From a virus: a DNA stretch of 36,212 nt. Positions 7,272 through 24,192 of the stretch are shown here, in pieces. Within the stretch, counting starts at the first letter, position 1. Each line of letters opens with the position of its first letter. A model generated the notes under the pieces. It was not told the DNA's origin and made no database searches. It saw only the letters and a program-made list of their open reading frames with translations. Where the stretch lies: positions 1 to 36,212 of IMG/VR virus record IMGVR_UViG_3300046820_000296. The stretch is one strand, 5' to 3'. The position numbers were made by a program, and so were the translations under genes.

Positions 7272-7475
7272 TTACTTGAAGATTCTATCCATGAAGAATG
7301 TGATACCACCGCCAACTAAAGATGCAATGGTCATGCCCATCCAGAAACCACCTTTAGACCTGTTGGCTAACTCTAAAAGGCACTTAACGTCTCTACTAAG
7401 ATCGCGTACTTCACTTTGGAGGGCTTCTACTTGAGCTTCTAGGCGACCAAACTCACGAGCTGAAACCTCATCCAT
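7272..7475 (-). CDS. Small coiled-coil protein with C-terminal membrane helix
   Basis: I take the ATG at 7475 as the start. It overlaps the upstream stop as TGATG, and the preceding in-frame GTG adds one residue only. The 67-residue product has an N-terminal heptad helix (FGRLEAQVEALQSEVRDLSR, about residues 8-27) and one membrane span (FWMGMTIASLVGGGITFFMD, about 44-63). This coiled coil plus single span plan resembles haemolysin XhlA-like and holin-accessory proteins. I do not see a second span, so a classical holin is not supported. It could serve in lysis or in virion-membrane contact. Confidence 0.55.
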   Translation of the reverse strand: MDEVSAREFGRLEAQVEALQSEVRDLSRDVKCLLELANRSKGGFWMGMTIASLVGGGITFFMDRIFK

Positions 7476-7666
7476 CACTCTGCCTCAGGTGTGTCAGCAG
7501 TAACTTTCTTAGGACGGCCTACAGTCTTCTTGACTTCTTCAGTCTCGACAGGAGCCTCATCGACCACGACCTCATAGTCAGGATGACCCTTCATGGAGTC
7601 AATATCGACTTGATGTTCAAAAGTAACGGTGTTACCGCTGAGTAGGCATTTAAAAGTTACAGACAT
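7475..7666 (-). CDS. Small acidic protein with AT-hook-like tail
   Basis: The ATG at 7666 is preferred. A GAGGA Shine-Dalgarno sequence lies about 10 bases upstream, whereas the longer frame begins with TTG inside the hairpin at 7704-7719. The 63-residue product starts MSVTFKCLLSGNTVTFEHQV, a short beta-rich segment. It then has an acidic stretch followed by KKTVGRPKK, which resembles an AT-hook. It is the first gene after the major capsid gene, the place where head decoration or completion proteins often lie. Function is unknown. Confidence 0.55.
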   Translation of the reverse strand: MSVTFKCLLSGNTVTFEHQVDIDSMKGHPDYEVVVDEAPVETEEVKKTVGRPKKVTADTPEAE

Positions 7667-7703
7667 GGTATGGTTATCCTCAGTGTGTTGTAGTAGATAC
7701 ACC

Positions 7704-7719
7704 AAAGGAGCCGTCCTTT
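7704..7719 (-). other. Hairpin downstream of the capsid gene
   Basis: On the minus-strand transcript this reads AAAGGA-CGGC-TCCTTT, a perfect 6-bp stem with a 4-nt loop, about 28 bases after the capsid stop codon. No U-run follows, so it is not a canonical intrinsic terminator. It may protect the abundant capsid mRNA or reduce read-through; that is inference. Confidence 0.45.
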
Positions 7720-7747
7720 TGAGACAGCCCCTTCAGTTTAGCTACTA

Positions 7748-8686
7748 TTAGACTGGTACTGCCAATGCAACAGAAGCGTAGTCACGCAACTCAGCAACAC
7801 CGTACAGAGTATCAGCAGTAAACAGAGTACCGAGGTATTCTTGTTTGTACTGAGTCTGTGAACGGATACCGACTTGCTCCACCAAGACCATAGAGTCCTT
7901 GTGTGCCATCAAACAGATACGTGCTGGTTGAGCTGTACCTGAACCATCGTTAGCGTCTGTAGGTGTGTCAGCGTTGGTAGACACAAACACTTTAACGCCA
8001 TACACATCACCGATTTCACCGTTACGGATGGTGTTAGCACCGCCTTGTTCGCCCACAAAAGCTTGTTCAGTGAAACGAGCCAAGCCCATCAGAGTGTTAC
8101 GGCTCGATGGAGGAACGATGAAGAAACGACCGTCCATAGGCACATCAGCGTCATCCAAACGCTGAATAGAACGACGAATTGCAGCGTCAGTCAAAGCAGC
8201 TTGGTTGTCAGTGGTGTAGTCATAGGCGGTAGTACCGTTAGAACCGATGAAAGCACCAGCGTAACGAGCACCAGCGCCGCCTTGAGCCAGACGACCCAAC
8301 TGGATCAGATCTGTATCAACTTGTTTAGCCAAAGCGTAACCAGCATCATCAGTGTAGAACTGACGGAGGCTAGACAGGGCTTGAGCTTCTGTGATGTCTT
8401 CGATCAAGCGGCTGTATTCGTAGTGCTTGTTGATCAAGACTTGCACTTCAGATTCAGTAGCGGCGATCAAAGTCACTTGAGTCGATGCAGCCTTAGCGGA
8501 AGCAGAGCCACGGGTAGGGCTAGGAATGTGAACGGTGTCACCTTTCTTACCCTTGAAGCTCATTTTCTTAACGAGGTTAGCAGCGACCAAGCCTTTTTTG
8601 TAGGCTGCAACAATTTCATCACTCCAAATTTCAGGAATGAACGTTGCTGCGGTTGTATTGGTTACGTGATTAGTTCCGAGACCCAT
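7748..8686 (-). CDS. Major capsid protein
   Basis: The 312-residue product has N-terminal TTAATFIPEIWSDEIVAAYK, then a positively charged strand MSFKGKKGDTVHIPSPTRGS (about residues 42-61), a helix region, and a C-terminal LYGVAELRDYASVALAVPV. This order (IPEIWS, KGDTVHIP, VDTDLIQLGR, GFRFFIVPP-like DGRFFIVPPSSRN, YGVKVFVSTN) is characteristic of HK97-fold coat proteins of podoviruses. The gene follows the scaffold gene and has a strong AGGAG ribosome site 9 bases before ATG. It forms the icosahedral shell around the scaffold and later the DNA. I am confident of this call. Confidence 0.92.
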   Translation of the reverse strand: MGLGTNHVTNTTAATFIPEIWSDEIVAAYKKGLVAANLVKKMSFKGKKGDTVHIPSPTRGSASAKAASTQVTLIAATESEVQVLINKHYEYSRLIEDITEAQALSSLRQFYTDDAGYALAKQVDTDLIQLGRLAQGGAGARYAGAFIGSNGTTAYDYTTDNQAALTDAAIRRSIQRLDDADVPMDGRFFIVPPSSRNTLMGLARFTEQAFVGEQGGANTIRNGEIGDVYGVKVFVSTNADTPTDANDGSGTAQPARICLMAHKDSMVLVEQVGIRSQTQYKQEYLGTLFTADTLYGVAELRDYASVALAVPV

Positions 8687-10156: not shown

Positions 10157-12841
10157 TTAGAAAAACATTAGAAAATTACCACCTACGCCACTAGCGGGGG
10201 CTACAACAGTGCCGTTGATGTAGCTGACGTTCAAATAGTTAATGCCACCACCAGCGGTAAACGTCAATCCTGTGTTGTTACCCGCATCAGTTGAGTTAGC
10301 ACCCATGAACCAAGTAGAGCCTTTTTGTAAGGTTGCTTGGGTAGTGTTAGTTGACCCTAACGTAACAAGGTTAACTAAAGCGCCTGTTAAGTTAAAGTTG
10401 GTAAAAATATTAGTCGTACCGCCTGTGAACAATACGCTTGTAAGGTTTACAGTGTTGGTTAGGTTGCTAAAGGTGTTGTTACCTGAAACCGTTAGCGTAC
10501 CAATACCGCCTTGATTCAATGTGCAGTTATATGTAGAGCCGCCGCCTACAAAGGTCTTGGCAGTAGCGGCAGTCATTGAGATCGTGCCTGTGCCTGTTCC
10601 TGCTGTAGTTGTGAATCCTGTGGGTGCTGCGTTGTTAAATGACGTTGTGTTTGCGTCAGGACAAACTAAAGTGCCGCCGTTAAAGGTTAGGTTTTTTGTT
10701 CCTGTGGACGTTGAGAAGCGAGTGCCAACTGTTAATGTTTTACCGTTTAAGTTCAAAGTGCCATTAGCTATACTAGCGGCTCTTGTAGAACCCATTGTTA
10801 AAGCATCTTCAAGTCGAAATGTTCCGCCAACGCCATTAAAATTAAGTGGGAAATCTATTGTCTTACCGTTTGTAGTAATCTGCTGAATGCCGCTAGTTCC
10901 TGCAAAAGTCATAGCGTTTACAACAGGAGTAAGCGTCATACCAGTAGAAAGCGTTAAGTTTCCATAGATTATTCCAGTTCCCGTTGAACCTAGCGTACCC
11001 GCAAAACCTGTAAAGTTAACATTTCTTGCTGTTGTACTAACTCCAAAAAAAATAGTCAACACATAAGTACCGCCAGTAAAATTAAAACTTATAGAGTTAG
11101 TTTCTGATAATTGGCCTGTGGATACAGTAATAGCAGTAGAACCTGTACTTGTGACGTTAACTACTTGAGTACCTGTTGTAGTTAATCCTGTAGTTGTTGC
11201 TGTAGTCCATACAGTACCCGTACCTGTACAAGTAATGTTACCTGTGCCAAAAGCAATGGTTCTAGTGTTTGAGTTGGTTGAACTAAAATTGCCTGTGCTT
11301 AATGTGTATGACTGAAGGTCTAACGTGCCTTGAGTTAGCGTTGTTGCTCCTGTTAAGGCTGTTGGGGTTGTCATTGCATCTTGCAAAGTAACTGAGCCAC
11401 TTGGACTGTTAATTGTGATGGCTTGAGCAAACGGCACACCAGCACTTGTAATTTGCTGTGTTGTGCGCCCCGCAAACGTGTAACTACCCGATACGTTGCT
11501 TGCATTTGTTACGCCCGTTCCACATATCCAATTGCCATGAATTATTGGGGTGTTTGATAATATTCCTAACGTCATAGTGTTTGACGTTCTTAACGACATA
11601 TCTATTGTGCCAATGTTATAACTGGCGTTAATATTTACCGTTGTGCCAGAAGAAGGATATGTAGCAGCAGGAAAGATGGCAGTATCTTGCGCCAACGGGA
11701 ACATAGTTGCGTCTAATGCACCGCCTGATGTAGCAGACCATGCCCCTGACGCTGATGTTCCCCAGTTTGCACCTAATGTTGATCTATAATAAACAGTCTT
11801 AGCAGCGTCAAATGTGATGTTGCTATTACCTTTACAGTCACCTAAACGAGTACCTGTAAACGGACTTCCTGCGCCAGAGGCAATAATGTCTCTAAAGTCA
11901 ACGTCAGTTAATGATTCTGCGGCGCAAGTTAATGTGCGCGGAGTACCAATCGTGTCAGAGGTAATAAATGTGCGATATGCCGCAGCAGTACCCGCGCTGA
12001 CTGTAAATGTTCCGTTAATTGTTTGGTTTGCGCTGATTGTTAGTGTAGTAATGCCAATCGTTGTTCGACCTGTTACCGATAAATTATTAAATGTATTTGC
12101 ACCTGTAATAACGTCAGAACCTTGAGCAGTAGATGTGAACGCTACATCGTAATAAGTTAACCCGCCACCAGCAAAAGTTGGTCCTGTACCGCTTGATAAA
12201 TTTATTGTTGATGTTCCTGCATTTAAAGTTGCGTTAGTGCTAGTTGCCATACTCCAAGCAGTACCGTTAGAACTCAATGTTATTGTGGAAGCGTTTAAAT
12301 TTATTGTTCTTGCGTTTGAGTTGCTAGATGAAAATGTTGAAGCAGTAATAGCATAATTACTTACTGAAGTATCAAAAGTTCCATTAATAAGCGATAAAGT
12401 AGAAGTTCCTAAATTAAGTGCAGAACCAAGAGTCCACCCACCACCTACACCATCAAATGTAACTGTTGAAAGAGATACGCCGTTAGTGGTTACAGTTTTG
12501 CCTGTAGTGGTGGCGTTAAATGTAGTTGTGCCTGTATAGGTACGGGTAAAGTTAGTAGCTTGAAATGTAAGACTGCCTGAAACTGTCAAACCAATGCTTG
12601 TTCCAGCAAGGGTCATCGTGCCATCAAGACCTGACGCTGTGAAGTCGTTACAGACCCTTGGCGATGTTGCCATAGTGACTGTAAATGCACCTGTGCCTAC
12701 GTTTGAATTGGCGTTAAAGAATACGTTATCTGCGGCAGTAGGAACGGAAGCACCACTAGCCCCGCCTGAAGTGGCAGACCAGTTAGCTGTGCTAGTACCG
12801 TCCCAAGTACCCGTTCCACCTACCCAATAACGATCAGCCAT
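10157..12841 (-). CDS. Giant repetitive virion adhesin (beta-helix-like)
   Basis: The product has 894 residues. A Trp-rich module at residues 4-42 (YWVGGTGTWDGTSTANWSAT, then VPTAADNVFF) returns in diverged form near residues 350-395 (NWGTSASGAWSATSGG, FPLAQDTAIF). Between and after these are many short beta repeats rich in Thr, Asn, Ser and Gly (for example NARTINLNASTITLSS and NTRTIAFGTGNITCTG). This is the plan of a right-handed beta-helix or stacked-sheet adhesin without an enzyme motif. It starts as TAATG with the 55-residue gene and belongs to the portal operon. The inferred role is host-surface or glycan binding. Composition is lower in C and more repetitive than its neighbours, compatible with acquisition or rapid evolution. 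Confidence 0.7.
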   Translation of the reverse strand: MADRYWVGGTGTWDGTSTANWSATSGGASGASVPTAADNVFFNANSNVGTGAFTVTMATSPRVCNDFTASGLDGTMTLAGTSIGLTVSGSLTFQATNFTRTYTGTTTFNATTTGKTVTTNGVSLSTVTFDGVGGGWTLGSALNLGTSTLSLINGTFDTSVSNYAITASTFSSSNSNARTINLNASTITLSSNGTAWSMATSTNATLNAGTSTINLSSGTGPTFAGGGLTYYDVAFTSTAQGSDVITGANTFNNLSVTGRTTIGITTLTISANQTINGTFTVSAGTAAAYRTFITSDTIGTPRTLTCAAESLTDVDFRDIIASGAGSPFTGTRLGDCKGNSNITFDAAKTVYYRSTLGANWGTSASGAWSATSGGALDATMFPLAQDTAIFPAATYPSSGTTVNINASYNIGTIDMSLRTSNTMTLGILSNTPIIHGNWICGTGVTNASNVSGSYTFAGRTTQQITSAGVPFAQAITINSPSGSVTLQDAMTTPTALTGATTLTQGTLDLQSYTLSTGNFSSTNSNTRTIAFGTGNITCTGTGTVWTTATTTGLTTTGTQVVNVTSTGSTAITVSTGQLSETNSISFNFTGGTYVLTIFFGVSTTARNVNFTGFAGTLGSTGTGIIYGNLTLSTGMTLTPVVNAMTFAGTSGIQQITTNGKTIDFPLNFNGVGGTFRLEDALTMGSTRAASIANGTLNLNGKTLTVGTRFSTSTGTKNLTFNGGTLVCPDANTTSFNNAAPTGFTTTAGTGTGTISMTAATAKTFVGGGSTYNCTLNQGGIGTLTVSGNNTFSNLTNTVNLTSVLFTGGTTNIFTNFNLTGALVNLVTLGSTNTTQATLQKGSTWFMGANSTDAGNNTGLTFTAGGGINYLNVSYINGTVVAPASGVGGNFLMFF

Positions 12842-18807: not shown

Positions 18808-19122
18808 TTATCCACAGGTTACTAACAAGATCTCCACAGGTTGTGCATGAGAGGCGATGAAGCACCTATAAAGTACTACTCCAGCAACACAATAGTTCTA
18901 AGGGTAAACACCTACCTCAAGAGTTATCCACAAGAGGTTGTTACTAAGCTGTGCATAAGTACGTAGTTATCCACAGACTAATCAACTTGGTGCATAAAAG
19001 CTCACCAAAGTAGTGCACTGGTGTCCATTCTGCATCACAATGGTGCATCATAAATGAATACTATACGTTACAATCTATACACATCATAGACTATATGTAT
19101 ACAAATTAGTGAAAACTATACA
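18808..19122 (+). promoter_or_regulatory. Candidate replication origin with DnaA boxes
   Basis: Three exact DnaA boxes TTATCCACA occur on the plus strand at 18808-18816, 18924-18932 and 18967-18975, each preceded by AG. A fourth box TTATGCACA is on the minus strand at 18950-18958. Near matches lie at 18990-18998 and 18842-18850. An AT-rich stretch with repeated CTATAC or CTATAT (about 19060-19122) follows, the usual place for a duplex-unwinding element. The layout copies a bacterial oriC in miniature. Function as an origin, or as a sink or regulator for host DnaA, is inference. Confidence 0.55.
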
Positions 19123-19416: not shown

Positions 19417-19638
19417 ATGAAAACCATCATCCATGTGAACCAACACGCCATACGCCGGAATATCAAGGCTACTGAGCCTGAACCTGTGCTGACAGTCAAA
19501 ACTTACAAGTCCAACACCTACGCACATGAGGTAAGCATTGAAGGCTCTAGCAAGGTCGTATACAGTCCACACAAGCCTCTCTCATGTGGTGCTAGAGTGT
19601 GGATTGAAACTGAATCAACTGTAACTATTATTAAGTAA
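19417..19638 (+). CDS. Conserved phage protein, small beta-rich
   Basis: The 73-residue product starts MKTIIHVNQHAIRRN, followed by VLTVKTYKSNTYAHEVSIEG and VVYSPHKPLSCGARVWIETE. I recognise this plan (IHVNQH, then TVK-YKSN, then YSP-KPLSCGA-VWIET) as a small protein found in many phages and prophages of Pseudomonadota. No function is known to me. AAGGAG lies 9 bases before ATG. It heads the early accessory set before the first membrane micropeptide. Confidence 0.7.
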   Translation: MKTIIHVNQHAIRRNIKATEPEPVLTVKTYKSNTYAHEVSIEGSSKVVYSPHKPLSCGARVWIETESTVTIIK

Positions 19639-19650
19639 GGAATCTAAACC

Positions 19651-19734
19651 ATGAACACCCACGAATTCATTGACCGCTTTGTCTTGCCTGCCTTGACCTT
19701 CATTGCTATACTTGTGGTCTGGATGACAGCCTAG
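19651..19734 (+). CDS. Membrane micropeptide 1 (27 aa)
   Basis: An ATG at 19651 with AAGGA 9 bases upstream opens 27 codons ending in TAG. The product begins MNTHEFIDRF and then forms one hydrophobic helix, VLPALTFIAILVVWMTA. It is closely related to micropeptide 3 at 21654-21737: 15 of 27 residues are identical, and 8 of those 15 use different codons, so the protein sequence is under selection. A shorter relative lies at 20038-20112. The likely location is the inner membrane, with about 9 polar residues on one side. Function is unknown; a host-membrane effector, superinfection-exclusion peptide or type I toxin-like peptide are options. Confidence 0.65.
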   Translation: MNTHEFIDRFVLPALTFIAILVVWMTA

Positions 19735-19812
19735 TCTGTAGAGTCTCAGCGATGGGGCTTTATGGGGTAGGATTGTCTACCTGTCTCAATCAACTTGTTA
19801 AGGATTAACACA
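19735..19812 (+). promoter_or_regulatory. Structured leader, copy 1, with Shine-Dalgarno hairpin
   Basis: This 78-base gap contains a hairpin GGTAG-GATTGT-CTACC (19766-19781). It ends with TGTTAA-GGA-TTAACA (about 19797-19811), a perfect 6-bp dyad with the ribosome-binding GGA in its loop. It is clearly homologous to 21738-21825 (shared GGGGCTT, TATGGGGTA, AATCAACTT, TAAGGATTA). The following gene starts at 19813. Confidence 0.6.
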
Positions 19813-20016
19813 ATGTCAAACACTACACTAAACACAAACGTAAACGTAATGAAAGCAAGGGCAATGCTAGGCACTGTCTCAGGTGCTACATGCGTTGATT
19901 CTAGCTTACTGTTAGAAGATGATGGATTCTGTGCACTACTCACGAAACTGTCTCATACTGTCTCACTCAATGAGGGCATCGAAGCCTTGATAGAATACGT
20001 GAACAACAACTATTAA
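19813..20016 (+). CDS. Small early protein, unknown
   Basis: The ATG at 19813 follows the ribosome-site hairpin of leader copy 1; an in-frame TTG further upstream would place the hairpin in coding sequence. The 67-residue product starts MSNTTLNTNVNVMKARAMLG, has a middle segment TVSGATCVDSSLLLEDDGFC and ends LNEGIEALIEYVNNNY. It is probably helical, with no motif that I recognise. It is one of three accessory genes that follow a micropeptide plus leader unit. Confidence 0.55.
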   Translation: MSNTTLNTNVNVMKARAMLGTVSGATCVDSSLLLEDDGFCALLTKLSHTVSLNEGIEALIEYVNNNY

Positions 20017-20037
20017 TCAACAGTAAGGGAAAACACC

Positions 20038-20112
20038 ATGAACAATCTCGCTCAATCTGTCTTATACTGGGTTTATGCCGTGGCTATCTTAGTTGTTTGG
20101 CTAACTCTGTAA
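20038..20112 (+). CDS. Membrane micropeptide 2 (24 aa)
   Basis: An ATG at 20038, with TAAGGG 9 bases upstream, opens 24 codons ending in TAA. The product is one hydrophobic helix: MNNLAQSVLYWVYAV followed by AILVVWLTL. The C-terminal AILVVW-T motif is shared with micropeptides 1 and 3. It is more diverged and shorter, and lacks the EF/LIDR start. Its leader (20113-20214) is also the most diverged of the three. The inferred location is the cytoplasmic membrane. Function is unknown. Confidence 0.6.
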   Translation: MNNLAQSVLYWVYAVAILVVWLTL

Positions 20113-20214
20113 CAATCTACCGTGAAGCCTATTATGCGTAGGCTTTGCAGTGCATTGTCAATCGCATCCAGCGATGCTGCACTATCTCGCTAACTTGTTA
20201 AGGATTAACACACC
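20113..20214 (+). promoter_or_regulatory. Structured leader, copy 2, with Shine-Dalgarno hairpin
   Basis: ACAAT (20112-20116) can pair with ATTGT (20154-20158) around a perfect 7-bp hairpin AAGCCTA-TTATGCG-TAGGCTT (20125-20145). A second hairpin, GCATC-CAGC-GATGC, lies at 20164-20177. The last part repeats 21 bases of copy 1 exactly (20192-20212), including the dyad TGTTAA-GGA-TTAACA that holds the ribosome site. The next gene starts at 20215. Confidence 0.6.
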
Positions 20215-20547
20215 ATGAAAACCTCTGTAAATTTCCATGACTTCATTGACGCATTCAAACGCTTTGACCGCTATGACGGTTACGGTTACGAAGCCCTCAA
20301 AGTAATCTATAACTACTTGGAAGAATACGAAGAATCAACAGGCGAAGAAATAGAGTTAGATGTAATTGCAATCTGTTGTGACTATAACGTAGACACGCCT
20401 TTAAGCATTGCTGAAAATTATGGCATTGAGATTGACGTCAACGAAAATGATGATGAAATTACTCAGCAAGTTAAAGACTTTTTAGAATCGGCTACGATTA
20501 TGCTCGGTGAAACCGCTGACGGTCAAATAGTCTATCAAGTATTCTAA
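20215..20547 (+). CDS. Conserved phage protein, acidic
   Basis: The 110-residue product has FDRYDGYGYEALKVIYNYLE (about 17-36), then EEYEESTGEEIELDVIAICC (about 36-55) and a C-terminal GETADGQIVYQVF. The motif 'YEAL--L--YLEE-EE-TGEEIELDVIA-CC-Y' is one I recognise from small accessory proteins of phages and plasmids. It is strongly acidic, which could mean DNA mimicry or protein binding; that is inference. It follows leader copy 2. Confidence 0.65.
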   Translation: MKTSVNFHDFIDAFKRFDRYDGYGYEALKVIYNYLEEYEESTGEEIELDVIAICCDYNVDTPLSIAENYGIEIDVNENDDEITQQVKDFLESATIMLGETADGQIVYQVF

Positions 20548-20562
20548 ACTCAGGGGCTAACT

Positions 20563-20805
20563 ATGTTTAAAGTTATCGAAAAGGATAATCCATTGGCGGT
20601 GCATTGTCTCTGCGACACGTTAGAGCGTGCTCAGTATTGGATTGACGTTAGAGCGCCTTGTTCGCTTGAAAGTGTAGCATGTTGGGTAGAAAGTCAGTTA
20701 AACCTATCAACAGTGGACTTTGTAAGGTGTGTTGATAGCTTAGTTAGGCAAGGTTCCATTGAGCTATCAATAGACGGTGCAGGTATTGTTATAGATTTAA
20801 GATAA
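20563..20805 (+). CDS. Small protein, possible winged-helix fold
   Basis: The 80-residue product starts MFKVIEKDNPLAVHCLCDTL, with a short N-terminal part ending ERAQYWIDVRAP. The second half, SLESVACWVESQLNLSTVDF to SIELSIDGAGIVIDL, has the helix-helix-helix-hairpin order of a small winged helix. The resemblance is by eye only. A GGGG-containing ribosome site lies before ATG. It belongs to the same operon as its neighbours, with gaps of 15 and 9 bases. Confidence 0.5.
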   Translation: MFKVIEKDNPLAVHCLCDTLERAQYWIDVRAPCSLESVACWVESQLNLSTVDFVRCVDSLVRQGSIELSIDGAGIVIDLR

Positions 20806-20814
20806 GGTTTTAAT

Positions 20815-21324
20815 ATGTCTAATAACATAGAAAACAAAGTTTTGAAACAAGCCCTTGATGCGTTGAAGTTGATCGCTTCACAAGACCAAGGGTGTGGAGG
20901 AACTTACACCGAAGCGGACGCGTGGCGGTCAGCTAAATACATTGCACTTACTAACATTGCTTCAATTAAAGAAGGATTATCAAAGGTGTCCGCATTTTCA
21001 AAGCCTGTAGCTTGGATGGATGCTAATCAGCCTTGGGACTTATATAAAAATAAGCCTAACATAGAAGCGCTGCCTCTTTATACCGAACCTCCACAACATG
21101 CGCTCATAGCTGAACACCGGAAAAATAAGTATGATGAACTACAAAACAGAATGGAAACTTTGTTCCGTTGCCCACGGTGTTGGTATTCTGAAATTATCCC
21201 TAACCGTTCATGGGTTGGTCTTACAATGGAAGACAAAAAAGAATATGTAGCTCAAGACTTTGGAGGTAATCGACTAGATGCCATGGACTGGGCAGAAAAA
21301 CGATTAAAGGAGAAAAATACATGA
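20815..21324 (+). CDS. Phage accessory protein with PVAW...PLYT domain
   Basis: The product has 169 residues. The N-terminal helix (VLKQALDALKLIASQDQ, about 9-25) is followed by KPVAWMDANQPWDLYKNKPN and ALPLYTEPPQ (about 63-94). This domain, in which a short PVAW strand is followed by a PLYT-PPQ strand, is very common in accessory proteins of Pseudomonadota phages. The C-terminal part has CPRCWYSEIIPNRSW and an acidic helix. A second protein with the same plan lies at 24395-24865. The role is unknown. The stop overlaps the next ATG (ATGA). Confidence 0.65.
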   Translation: MSNNIENKVLKQALDALKLIASQDQGCGGTYTEADAWRSAKYIALTNIASIKEGLSKVSAFSKPVAWMDANQPWDLYKNKPNIEALPLYTEPPQHALIAEHRKNKYDELQNRMETLFRCPRCWYSEIIPNRSWVGLTMEDKKEYVAQDFGGNRLDAMDWAEKRLKEKNT

Positions 21325-21632
21325 AAAACTTTACCAAAGAAGACGCACTTTGTTTAATGAATGAGGCAGGGCTAGGAATCGGAGGGGCGTTTTATGTTGA
21401 AGATGTGCTCAGGTTTATGTCGTTAGTGGTTGAACGCGCCGATTTAAAACCTAGACTATTAGATGGACAGCTTCGGCGTCTATGGTGTCAATATGCGGCT
21501 AACATGCACGGCTGGCCCAATGATGGAGTGCCTCCGCTTTGTGATATAAATGGGTATGTAGGCTTTCAAGAGCCTTGGCATGAATCAGAATATCAAGTTT
21601 TCAAAGCGGGCTATCTATCAGCTTACAACTAA
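21321..21632 (+). CDS. Hypothetical accessory protein
   Basis: The 103-residue product starts MKNFTKEDALCLMNEAGLGI and is coupled to the gene before it by ATGA. It has a helical N-terminal half (YVEDVLRFMSLVVERAD) and an aromatic C-terminal half (GWPNDGVPPLCDINGYVGFQ, then EPWHESEYQVF). The N-terminal 'EDAL-LMNEAG' pattern recalls the small proteins at 32783-33034 and elsewhere in phage accessory regions. I do not recognise a function. Confidence 0.55.
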   Translation: MKNFTKEDALCLMNEAGLGIGGAFYVEDVLRFMSLVVERADLKPRLLDGQLRRLWCQYAANMHGWPNDGVPPLCDINGYVGFQEPWHESEYQVFKAGYLSAYN

Positions 21633-21653
21633 TCAACCAAAGGAATCACTACC

Positions 21654-21737
21654 ATGTCTATAAACGAACTGATCGATCGAGTTATCATCCCTGCTTTGGG
21701 CTTTGTTGCCCTTGTAGTGGTTTGGCTTACTGCCTGA
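21654..21737 (+). CDS. Membrane micropeptide 3 (27 aa)
   Basis: An ATG at 21654 with AAGGA 9 bases upstream opens 27 codons ending in TGA. The product starts MSINELIDRV and continues as one hydrophobic helix IIPALGFVALVVVWLTA. It aligns without gaps to micropeptide 1, sharing E5, I7, D8, R9, P13, A14, L15, F17, A19, V22, V23, W24, T26 and A27 besides Met1. Differences are mainly conservative and many codons differ. It probably spans the inner membrane once. The function is unknown. Confidence 0.65.
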   Translation: MSINELIDRVIIPALGFVALVVVWLTA

Positions 21738-21825
21738 GTTACAATCTAGCTTATAGGGGCTCTGCGAGGGGCTTCTATGGGGTACATTGTGTACCGTCAA
21801 TCAACTTTCTAAGGATTAGAACATC
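21738..21825 (+). promoter_or_regulatory. Structured leader, copy 3, with Shine-Dalgarno hairpin
   Basis: This 88-base gap is homologous to copy 1. The hairpin GGTACA-TTG-TGTACC (21781-21795) replaces GGTAG/CTACC. The ribosome-site dyad is TTCTAA-GGA-TTAGAA (about 21806-21820) instead of TGTTAA-GGA-TTAACA. Two pairs differ by changes on both sides (G-C to T-A and T-A to C-G), which keeps the dyad intact. Confidence 0.62.
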
Positions 21826-22080
21826 ATGCAAGCAATTCAAACACGCTATCTTTGCCCAACTAACTCACGCGGGGCACGCATCAAGGCCTCTTGTGCCGCT
21901 GGTTCAATCACAATCAGCTATCCACACGAGCTATCAGGCCAAGCGGTACATCGCAAAGCTGCTGAGGCTTTGGTGACTAAATTAGGCTGGGTTGACCCTT
22001 ATTATGGCGGCTTATTGGGTGGTTGTCTGCCTAATGGTGACTATTGCTTTGTGTTCACCTCTAAAGTGTCTGAGGAGTAA
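21826..22080 (+). CDS. Conserved phage/plasmid protein
   Basis: The 84-residue product starts MQAIQTRYLCPTNSRGARIK, with SITISYPHELSGQAVHRKAA and KLGWVDPYYGGLLGGCLPNG following. I recognise this pattern (TRY--PTNTRGSRIKA, YPHELSGEAVHR-AAEAL--KLGW, GLP-GDYCFVF) as a small protein common in phages and mobile elements of Pseudomonadota. The role is unknown. It follows leader copy 3, and its start is fixed by the ribosome-site hairpin. Confidence 0.7.
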   Translation: MQAIQTRYLCPTNSRGARIKASCAAGSITISYPHELSGQAVHRKAAEALVTKLGWVDPYYGGLLGGCLPNGDYCFVFTSKVSEE

Positions 22081-23980: not shown

Positions 23981-24142
23981 ATGGAAGAAATTGTAACTCA
24001 ACATCAAGATGATTATGTCTTGTTACAAAAAGAAGCACATTATGTACACACCATTAATGCTTTTGTGGAATTGATTGTTGAACATGGGTGGGATAAAGTA
24101 ACGTCTGATCTTAGAATCGCTATGGGTAACAAATCATGGTGA
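23981..24142 (+). CDS. Small hypothetical protein (53 aa)
   Basis: An ATG at 23981, with AAGGGG before it, opens 53 codons ending in TGA. The product starts MEEIVTQHQDDYVLLQKEAH and continues FVELIVEHGWDKVTSDLRIA. It is helical and acidic, with no motif that I recognise. The stop overlaps the start of the next micro-ORF (TGATG). Ribosome site, codon use and overlap support it as real. Confidence 0.55.
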   Translation: MEEIVTQHQDDYVLLQKEAHYVHTINAFVELIVEHGWDKVTSDLRIAMGNKSW

Positions 24143-24192
24143 TGGCTTTGATTGTTTTTGTCTTAACTTTGATAAAGGTATCATTAAAATGA
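24142..24192 (+). CDS. Micro-ORF, hydrophobic peptide (16 aa)
   Basis: The ATG at 24142 overlaps the stop of the 53-residue gene (TGATG). The 16-codon frame (MALIVFVLTLIKVSLK) ends in a TGA that overlaps the ATG of the next gene (ATGA). The peptide is hydrophobic with a basic end. Overlaps on both sides suggest that ribosomes pass through it; whether the peptide matters is unknown. Confidence 0.35.
   Translation: MALIVFVLTLIKVSLK

What the first reader, a model, noticed from the sequence alone, without database searches (positions are those of the whole stretch)
19651..21825. Three-copy module: membrane micropeptide plus structured leader
Three micro-ORFs (19651-19734, 20038-20112, 21654-21737) each encode one membrane helix ending in ...VVW-T-, each has a good ribosome site, and each is followed by a related 78-102-base leader and an accessory gene. 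Peptides 1 and 3 share 15 of 27 residues, yet 8 of those 15 use different codons, which is strong evidence of protein-level selection. I know of no described phage family with this plan. Roles such as membrane effector, superinfection exclusion or toxin are open.
Basis: partly seen in the sequence, partly recalled or inferred. Interest (0 to 1): 0.72.

Follow-up and report, generated by a model that had tools for sequence, protein, structure and literature searches.

The report
Single-helix micropeptide in phage early operon
A group of uncultured bacterial viruses usually carry, near the start of their early genes, a very small gene for a peptide that is just one membrane-spanning helix; the peptide is conserved, is replaced in relatives by other peptides of the same kind, matched no family library searched, and has no known function.

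Summary
In detail: three micro-ORFs of 27, 24 and 27 codons, each with a ribosome site and one predicted membrane helix. I found 61 distinct copies (family F1); pN/pS among near pairs is 0.17-0.26, so the peptide is selected.

The "three-copy module" is not a unit. All 34 closest relatives tested (terminase identity at least 86%, at least 2.5 kb of early region held) have F1, 33 of them once; the other is the window's near twin with three. The long hairpin follows 21 of 61 copies, also stands before the same downstream gene families away from F1, and follows the capsid gene. A second leader part is real: a covarying hairpin with the Shine-Dalgarno in its loop (44 of 192 AAGGAT starts; permuted mean 3.0), in held loci seen only in F1 phages.

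In the sister clade (16 contigs) F1 (4) is mostly replaced by other single-helix peptides, F2 or F3; a second phage group shows the same F1/F2 swap. F1 and F2 were together in no locus held.

Best reading: an early inner-membrane effector acting on a host membrane protein, possibly superinfection exclusion. Expression, target and function are untested.

The parts
19651..19734 (+). F1 micropeptide copy 1 (27 aa, one predicted membrane helix)
20038..20112 (+). F1 micropeptide copy 2 (24 aa, subtype ending VLYWxYAxAIxVVWLTL)
21654..21737 (+). F1 micropeptide copy 3 (27 aa)
19718..19795 (+). long covarying hairpin element (model R1); its 5' arm overlaps the last codons of copy 1
21729..21806 (+). 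long covarying hairpin element (model R1) behind copy 3
20122..20183 (+). different hairpin pair behind copy 2 (not found by R1; similar layout behind the peptide in L006 and L110)
19766..19781 (+). alternative small hairpin GGUAG..CUACC, mutually exclusive with the outer part of the long stem
21781..21795 (+). alternative small hairpin GGUAC..GUACC, mutually exclusive with the outer part of the long stem
19796..19810 (+). Shine-Dalgarno-in-loop hairpin UGUU-AAGGAUU-AACA of the next gene
20196..20210 (+). Shine-Dalgarno-in-loop hairpin UGUU-AAGGAUU-AACA of the next gene
21807..21821 (+). Shine-Dalgarno-in-loop hairpin UUCU-AAGGAUU-AGAA of the next gene
19813..20016 (+). accessory gene behind copy 1 (67 aa, no PHROGs or Pfam hit)
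20215..20547 (+). accessory gene behind copy 2 (110 aa, phrog_9974, unknown function)
21826..22080 (+). accessory gene behind copy 3 (84 aa, phrog_3199, unknown function)

Best explanation
The micro-ORFs encode F1, a 23-31 residue single-pass inner-membrane peptide made by one of the first genes of the operon that diverges from the terminase genes. SHOWN: it is a conserved protein family under purifying selection, normally one per phage, at a fixed place; other single-helix peptides (F2, F3) with no detectable kinship fill the same place in relatives, and F1 and F2 were never seen together in the loci held. INFERRED: the peptide is translated and enters the inner membrane; the slot has one job, and F1, F2 and F3 are alternative solutions. 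The most likely mechanism is that the helix binds sideways to a helix of a host membrane protein, through the nearly invariant A-x-x-V-V-W-x-T face, so preparing the cell for the phage. Shutting out a second phage (superinfection exclusion) or blocking a membrane-bound host function are the likeliest forms. The leaders are separate: a stop-codon hairpin that goes with certain downstream genes, and a hairpin that shows the Shine-Dalgarno in its loop. The window is a case in which accessory cassettes probably brought two extra copies.
For: 61 distinct F1 copies, 60 with ATG, 57 with a ribosome site as scored; pN/pS 0.17, 0.21 and 0.26 in the three identity bands above 65%. 34 of 34 closest relatives with at least 2.5 kb of early region held carry it, 33 with one copy; of 26 whole records searched for F1, 12 had it, 11 with one copy and 1 with two. 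By a simple ORF caller it is gene 1-4 of the operon in 38 of 38 loci. Sister clade, 16 contigs: 4 F1, 9 F2 (one of them also F3), 1 F3, 1 weak F3-like, 1 none found. 0 of 80 F2 loci hold F1 within the 3 kb flanks. A second phage group, with no match to the window's terminase in the records held, carries F1 (L018, L019, L022; the last two share one sequence) or F2 (L185, L186, L218) beside the same two neighbours: a 116-aa protein 76-86% and a 181-aa protein 66-73% identical to the F1 member's. F2 is also under purifying selection (pN/pS 0.14-0.26).
Against: No expression, localisation or target data. The membrane helix rests on hydropathy and reading of the sequence; the window's peptides are below the 30-residue limit of the structure tool. 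pN/pS rises to 0.38 in the most distant band (50-65% identity), where sites are saturated. F1, F2 and F3 may share an origin too old to see (F2 and F3 score 4.8 bits or less with the F1 model). One sister-clade contig (L124) shows no peptide and L151 carries F2 plus F3, so exclusivity is not perfect. F2 and F3 were first picked by eye from a hydropathy list. Peptide patterns were used to fetch part of the F1 set, which inflates the conservation of VVW; only the terminase sample is free of that, and it kept the best 80 of 415 relatives.
Confidence: 0.5

Rival explanations
1. Superinfection exclusion specifically: each peptide type shuts the cell to phages of its own type, so the types mark exclusion groups.
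For: Place among the first genes, predicted membrane helix, normally one per phage, alternative types in one slot, swap seen in two phage groups.
Against: No functional data; known exclusion proteins (T4 Imm, recalled) are larger; tail or receptor genes were not compared between types.
Confidence: 0.22
2. Leader peptide: ribosome stalling or termination on the micro-ORF regulates the next gene through the hairpin (attenuation).
For: The hairpin's 5' arm starts at or within the stop codon, and two mutually exclusive stems change in step. With a ribosome placed on the stop codon the small hairpin becomes more likely in 14 of 14 leaders scored, and predicted exposure of the Shine-Dalgarno rises in 10 of the 14 (W2 gave no scorable small hairpin).
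Against: 40 of 61 F1 copies lack the hairpin; in the 57 copies with a called next gene the gap runs from 9 to 107 nt (one more at 171, over a decayed copy) and there are 18 downstream clusters. The same hairpin follows other genes, including the capsid gene. Shine-Dalgarno exposure falls in 4 of 14 and most rises are small.
Confidence: 0.07
3. A membrane toxin or pore-former of the type I toxin kind (DinQ, TisB; recalled).
For: Size and one-helix design are alike.
Against: It is kept in 34 of 34 close relatives, not a sporadic addiction module; no antitoxin RNA is known from Rfam matches (none), though antisense RNA was not otherwise sought.
Confidence: 0.1
4. A holin or antiholin acting in lysis.
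For: A membrane peptide of a phage in which I identified no holin (no full annotation was made).
Against: It sits in the operon that diverges from terminase, while the structural genes are on the other strand, with a 68-aa protein that by eye has a C-terminal hydrophobic stretch (7272-7478) as another candidate; that protein has no PHROG hit and only sub-threshold coiled-coil matches in Pfam.
Confidence: 0.06
5. The leader's Shine-Dalgarno-in-loop hairpins are host CsrA/RsmA sites, so the genes behind F1 answer to the host's Csr system.
For: GGA in the loop of a 4-bp hairpin, loop AAGGAU, over the ribosome site, as described for CsrA sites (PMC7652899, passages seen).
Against: The loop has seven nucleotides, not the favoured six; the ACA and GU flanks of the consensus are absent; any such Shine-Dalgarno contains GGA. 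The host is unknown.
Confidence: 0.15

Closest known systems
Small single-helix regulators of bacterial membrane proteins (MgtR, MgrB, AcrZ, CydX kind; recalled)
   Same: Size class, one helix, likely lateral helix-helix action
   Different: Phage-borne, in an early operon slot with alternative families; no family match in the libraries searched
Type I toxin peptides DinQ/TisB/ZorO (recalled)
   Same: 18-30 residues, one hydrophobic helix
   Different: Kept in 34 of 34 close relatives; no antisense RNA known
Phage superinfection-exclusion membrane proteins (T4 Imm, recalled)
   Same: Early, membrane, one per phage
   Different: F1 is much shorter; function untested here
CsrA/RsmA-binding hairpins
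   Same: GGA in the loop of a short stem over the Shine-Dalgarno
   Different: Seven-base loop AAGGAUY, free stem sequence, no ACA/GU flanks
T7 RNase III processing hairpins between early genes (recalled)
   Same: Roughly 21-pair hairpins with internal mismatches at gene junctions
   Different: A second, mutually exclusive stem; no cleavage data

Membership tests
Any Pfam / PHROGs / NCBIfam family | profile match at the curated cut-off or E<0.001 | tested here: not met
   best F1 matches 0.042 (Pfam TMEM175, 14.8 bits, cut-off 25), 0.17 (phrog_4546), 0.046 (NCBIfam HpsJ, 13.6 bits, cut-off 60) for 4 queries; F2/F3 best 0.034 in PHROGs and 0.3 in Pfam, NCBIfam not searched for F2/F3
Regulatory leader peptide (attenuator) | fixed link to one downstream gene and its leader | tested here: not met
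   18 downstream clusters, hairpin behind 21 of 61
Regulatory leader peptide (attenuator) | mutually exclusive RNA structures that respond to a ribosome on the ORF | tested here: inconclusive
   small hairpin rises in 14 of 14 scored; predicted Shine-Dalgarno exposure up in 10, down in 4; stems covary
Type I toxin-antitoxin | short hydrophobic single-helix peptide | tested here: met
   sequence and hydropathy
Type I toxin-antitoxin | antisense RNA antitoxin | not testable with these tools
   no transcript data; no Rfam match
Holin | expression late, with lysis genes | tested here: inconclusive
   gene 1-4 of the operon diverging from terminase in 38 of 38 loci, which speaks against it; timing was not measured
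Superinfection exclusion | blocks infection by a second phage | not testable with these tools
   needs a bench test
CsrA/RsmA site | ANGGA in a hairpin loop | tested here: met
   AAGGATC heptaloop with 13 distinct stems, no other heptaloop above 2
CsrA/RsmA site | six-base loop with ACA and GU flanks (SELEX consensus RUACARGGAUGU) | tested here: not met
   seven-base loop; stems vary freely (consensus from passages of PMC7652899)
Rfam RNA family | covariance-model score | tested here: not met
   no match: window and 11 loci at gathering scores, window 19600-21900 also at E<=5

The most novel reading that the evidence does not exclude
Phages of several groups share one early 'membrane micropeptide slot', filled by interchangeable, mutually exclusive one-helix peptides that act as exclusion-group determinants: a membrane-level identity system of phages built from peptides of only 23-32 residues, with F1 members tied to genes whose ribosome sites are shown in the loop of a covarying hairpin.
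Probability: 0.2. Interest if true: 0.82.

Novelty: new variant of a known kind. Interest (0 to 1): 0.6.

Why it matters
Two peptide families without a match in the libraries searched (F1, 61 distinct copies held; F2, 420 relatives reported in one scan) sit in one slot of a phage lineage with 415 terminase relatives reported in IMG/VR. A slot that is nearly always filled, but by different one-helix peptides, is a clean lead to a common early membrane target in the host. It can be tested by expressing the peptides in a laboratory strain and by pull-down.

Tried and rejected
Rejected: peptide and leader as one module; attenuation by hiding the Shine-Dalgarno, for want of a constant effect (exposure up in 10, down in 4 of 14); the Shine-Dalgarno-in-loop hairpin as a genome-wide feature: over 444 gene starts the excess was small (stem of 4 or more: 106 observed, 84.2 permuted, highest of 300 permutations 106), and it is specific to AAGGATC/T loops; it was absent from F2 loci (0 of 80). 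F1 in cellular genomes: an exact-pattern scan of genome contigs gave 11 hits, 0 of 11 an F1-like micropeptide. Led nowhere: distant blastn of the region to cultured phages; terminase to cultured phages (26% identity in the 25 rows shown); paper searches on phage membrane micropeptides, on such phages, on RNase III sites and on an RNA motif name. The host is not known. No structure was predicted. The gene beside the terminase is called small terminase in my scripts by position only; neither it nor the neighbours used to mark the other phage groups has an informative PHROG match. One F1 copy (L048/L011) was dropped from the first list by a ribosome-site filter and restored by the HMM. Duplicate loci were removed before the count of 61, so the window's near twin L075 is not counted again; the 34 and 38 counts keep contigs that may be one virus (L044 and L104 carry the same peptide).
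Full report
OBSERVATION. Peptides 1 and 3 share 15 of 27 residues and 8 of the 15 use different codons. The window is an IMG/VR virus record of 36,212 bases with PHROG matches for terminase, portal, capsid, DNA polymerase, primase-helicase and ribonucleotide reductase. The 25 rows shown for its terminase among cultured phages are at 26% identity.

RELATIVES. Scans of viral contigs with the peptides and DNA patterns gave 39 loci with 38 distinct peptides in a first list. An independent scan with the terminase returned the best 80 of 415 relatives. An HMM of the peptides over 49,308 small open frames separated members (32.6 bits and above) from the next match (13.8 bits). After removing duplicate loci there are 61 F1 copies with 61 distinct 54-nt cores and 54 distinct peptide cores. 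W and T are kept in 61 of 61, the two V in 59 and 56, the A in 57; part of the set was fetched with patterns that demand VVW. pN/pS is 0.17, 0.21 and 0.26 in the identity bands above 65% and 0.38 at 50-65%. 60 of 61 start with ATG and 57 have a ribosome site as scored; of the other four, one had its start mis-chosen by my script (L023), two have no clear site (L011, L113) and one (second copy of L133) is a decayed copy without ATG.

DISTRIBUTION. Among the 80 terminase loci, those with identity of at least 86% and at least 2.5 kb of early region number 34, and 34 of 34 hold F1: 33 one copy, one (L075, near twin of the window) three. With 1.5 kb as the limit it is 35 of 36; the miss, L115, holds only 1.7 kb. 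In the 80-86% band 16 contigs qualify: 4 F1, 9 F2 (L151 also F3), 1 F3 (L145), 1 weak F3-like (L123, 19 bits), 1 with none found (L124). L135 and L138 share the same F2 region, so they may be one virus. Searching 26 whole records gave F1 in 12: one copy in 11, two in one. By a simple ORF caller F1 is gene 1 to 4 of the operon that diverges from the terminase in 38 of 38 loci.

THE SLOT. F2 (about 31 residues...GALAYFDVL..) has 420 relatives reported in one scan, of which the best 80 were kept. 0 of 80 F2 loci hold F1 or F3 at 25 bits or more within the held flanks, and no F1 locus held F2. 19 of the 80 have the window's terminase in the flank, 42 belong to a group marked by a 145-aa protein (G075), 9 match at least one marker of the G004 group (some at only 34-36% identity), 10 were unassigned. 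In the G004 group, whose records held show no match to the window's terminase (records may be fragments), F1 (L018; L019 and L022 with one sequence) and F2 (L185, L186, L218) lie beside the same neighbours: a 116-aa protein 76-86% identical and a 181-aa protein 66-73% identical to the F1 member's; neither has an informative PHROG match. So the peptide was exchanged at one place in a second phage group. The gene behind F2 in L186 is a phrog_9974 member, 63% identical to the gene behind copy 2 in the window. F2 is also under purifying selection. F2 and F3 are not detectably related to F1 (at most 4.8 bits). F1 also occurs in two further records with no match (L015) or only distant, partial matches (L039) to the window's terminase and polymerase.

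LEADER, PART ONE. A long hairpin (14 sequences, 21 pairs, 94.9% of cells paired, 10 pairs with changes on both sides; none of 500 shuffles reached this; slid controls 34-53% paired; the structure was derived from the same alignment) starts at the stop codon of the gene before it, and sometimes uses the last codons of F1. A small hairpin, mutually exclusive with the outer stem, is kept with many base-pair changes (16 stretches picked by eye, not tested against a control). With a ribosome placed on the stop codon the small hairpin becomes more likely in 14 of 14 scored leaders, while predicted Shine-Dalgarno exposure rises in 10 and falls in 4. The hairpin is behind 21 of 61 F1 copies (folding energy -20 kcal/mol or lower; none lies between -20 and -10). 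It follows the downstream gene cluster: phrog_3199-like 5 of 5, phrog_9974-like 11 of 17, four other clusters 0 of 21. It also stands where F1 is not adjacent, before genes of those or other families (L016, L036, L081, L100, L111, L121, L137; L147 at E 0.15 only), and behind the capsid gene (window 7682-7756 minus strand, L076, L101). So it is not part of a peptide module.

LEADER, PART TWO. The shared last stretch is a 4-bp hairpin with loop AAGGAUC/U that shows the Shine-Dalgarno. Of 192 distinct AAGGAT starts, 44 have the perfect stem (permuted mean 3.0, highest of 1000 permutations 9; sliding by -1, +1 and +2 gives 0, 0, 1), with 14 stem sequences. A loop-blind screen ranks AAGGATC far above any other heptaloop (13 distinct stems against at most 2); triloops, with only 64 kinds, reach 15. 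28 of the 44 are within 200 nt behind F1, in a set of loci partly fetched around F1. In the lineage, 24 of 38 F1 phages and 0 of 12 without F1 have one; 0 of 80 F2 loci do; L036, whose terminase is only 64% like the window's, has F1 twice and three such hairpins; L015, L018, L019, L022, L039 and L041, F1 loci of other groups, have none. Kinship is not removed from this comparison. A broader test over 444 starts showed only a small excess.

MECHANISM. Shown: protein-level selection, fixed place, one copy as a rule, alternative peptides. Inferred: translation, membrane insertion, a lateral helix contact through the conserved A, V, V, W, T face, one shared job. I favour an early membrane effector on a host protein; superinfection exclusion is the most testable form. 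Rivals and refutations are listed in their sections.

KNOWN KINDS. No significant Pfam, PHROGs or NCBIfam match for F1, none in PHROGs or Pfam for F2/F3; no Rfam match; no tblastn match of F1 or F2 in 50,697 phage records at E<=10, a weak test for such short queries. The pattern scan of genome contigs gave 0 of 11 true members. Papers: passages of PMC11323111 (phage small proteins review) and PMC7652899 (CsrA review) were seen; searches were seen as listings only and one search listed nothing; none of the listings names these peptides. Fremin et al. 2022 (thousands of small phage genes) was seen only as a reference and is not held, so whether it lists F1 or F2 is unknown. Names such as DinQ, TisB, MgrB and T4 Imm are recalled.

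Noticed in passing
window 24136-24192 (+): A second tiny hydrophobic peptide, MVMALIVFVLTLIKVSLK (18 aa, coordinates read off), whose stop overlaps the next gene's ATG; 37 distinct copies with the LTLxKV ending in held loci, in both terminase bands.
   Followed up: partly
window 18808-18975 (+): Three exact TTATCCACA (DnaA-box consensus, recalled) in 168 bases of the non-coding stretch before the early operon; expected 0.33 in the window; at least one in 25 of 47 related loci within 2 kb of the terminase start. Possible replication origin.
   Followed up: partly
window 7682-7756 (-): The same kind of long hairpin directly behind the major capsid gene (E 1e-6), also in L076 and L101.
   Followed up: partly
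L133, minus strand, reverse-complement 11440-11517: A second F1 copy without a start codon right behind a hairpin: a decayed duplicate.
   Followed up: no
L020, L021, L024, L026, L032, L037, L050: A fixed leader CTCACCAAGTATCGGAGCA before the gene behind F1 in place of the AAGGAUC hairpin, with the Shine-Dalgarno in a possible stem.
   Followed up: no
window 20215-20547 (+) and L186 3109-3438 (+): The phrog_9974 accessory gene follows F1 in the window and F2 in another phage group (63% identical), so the accessory pool is shared.
   Followed up: partly
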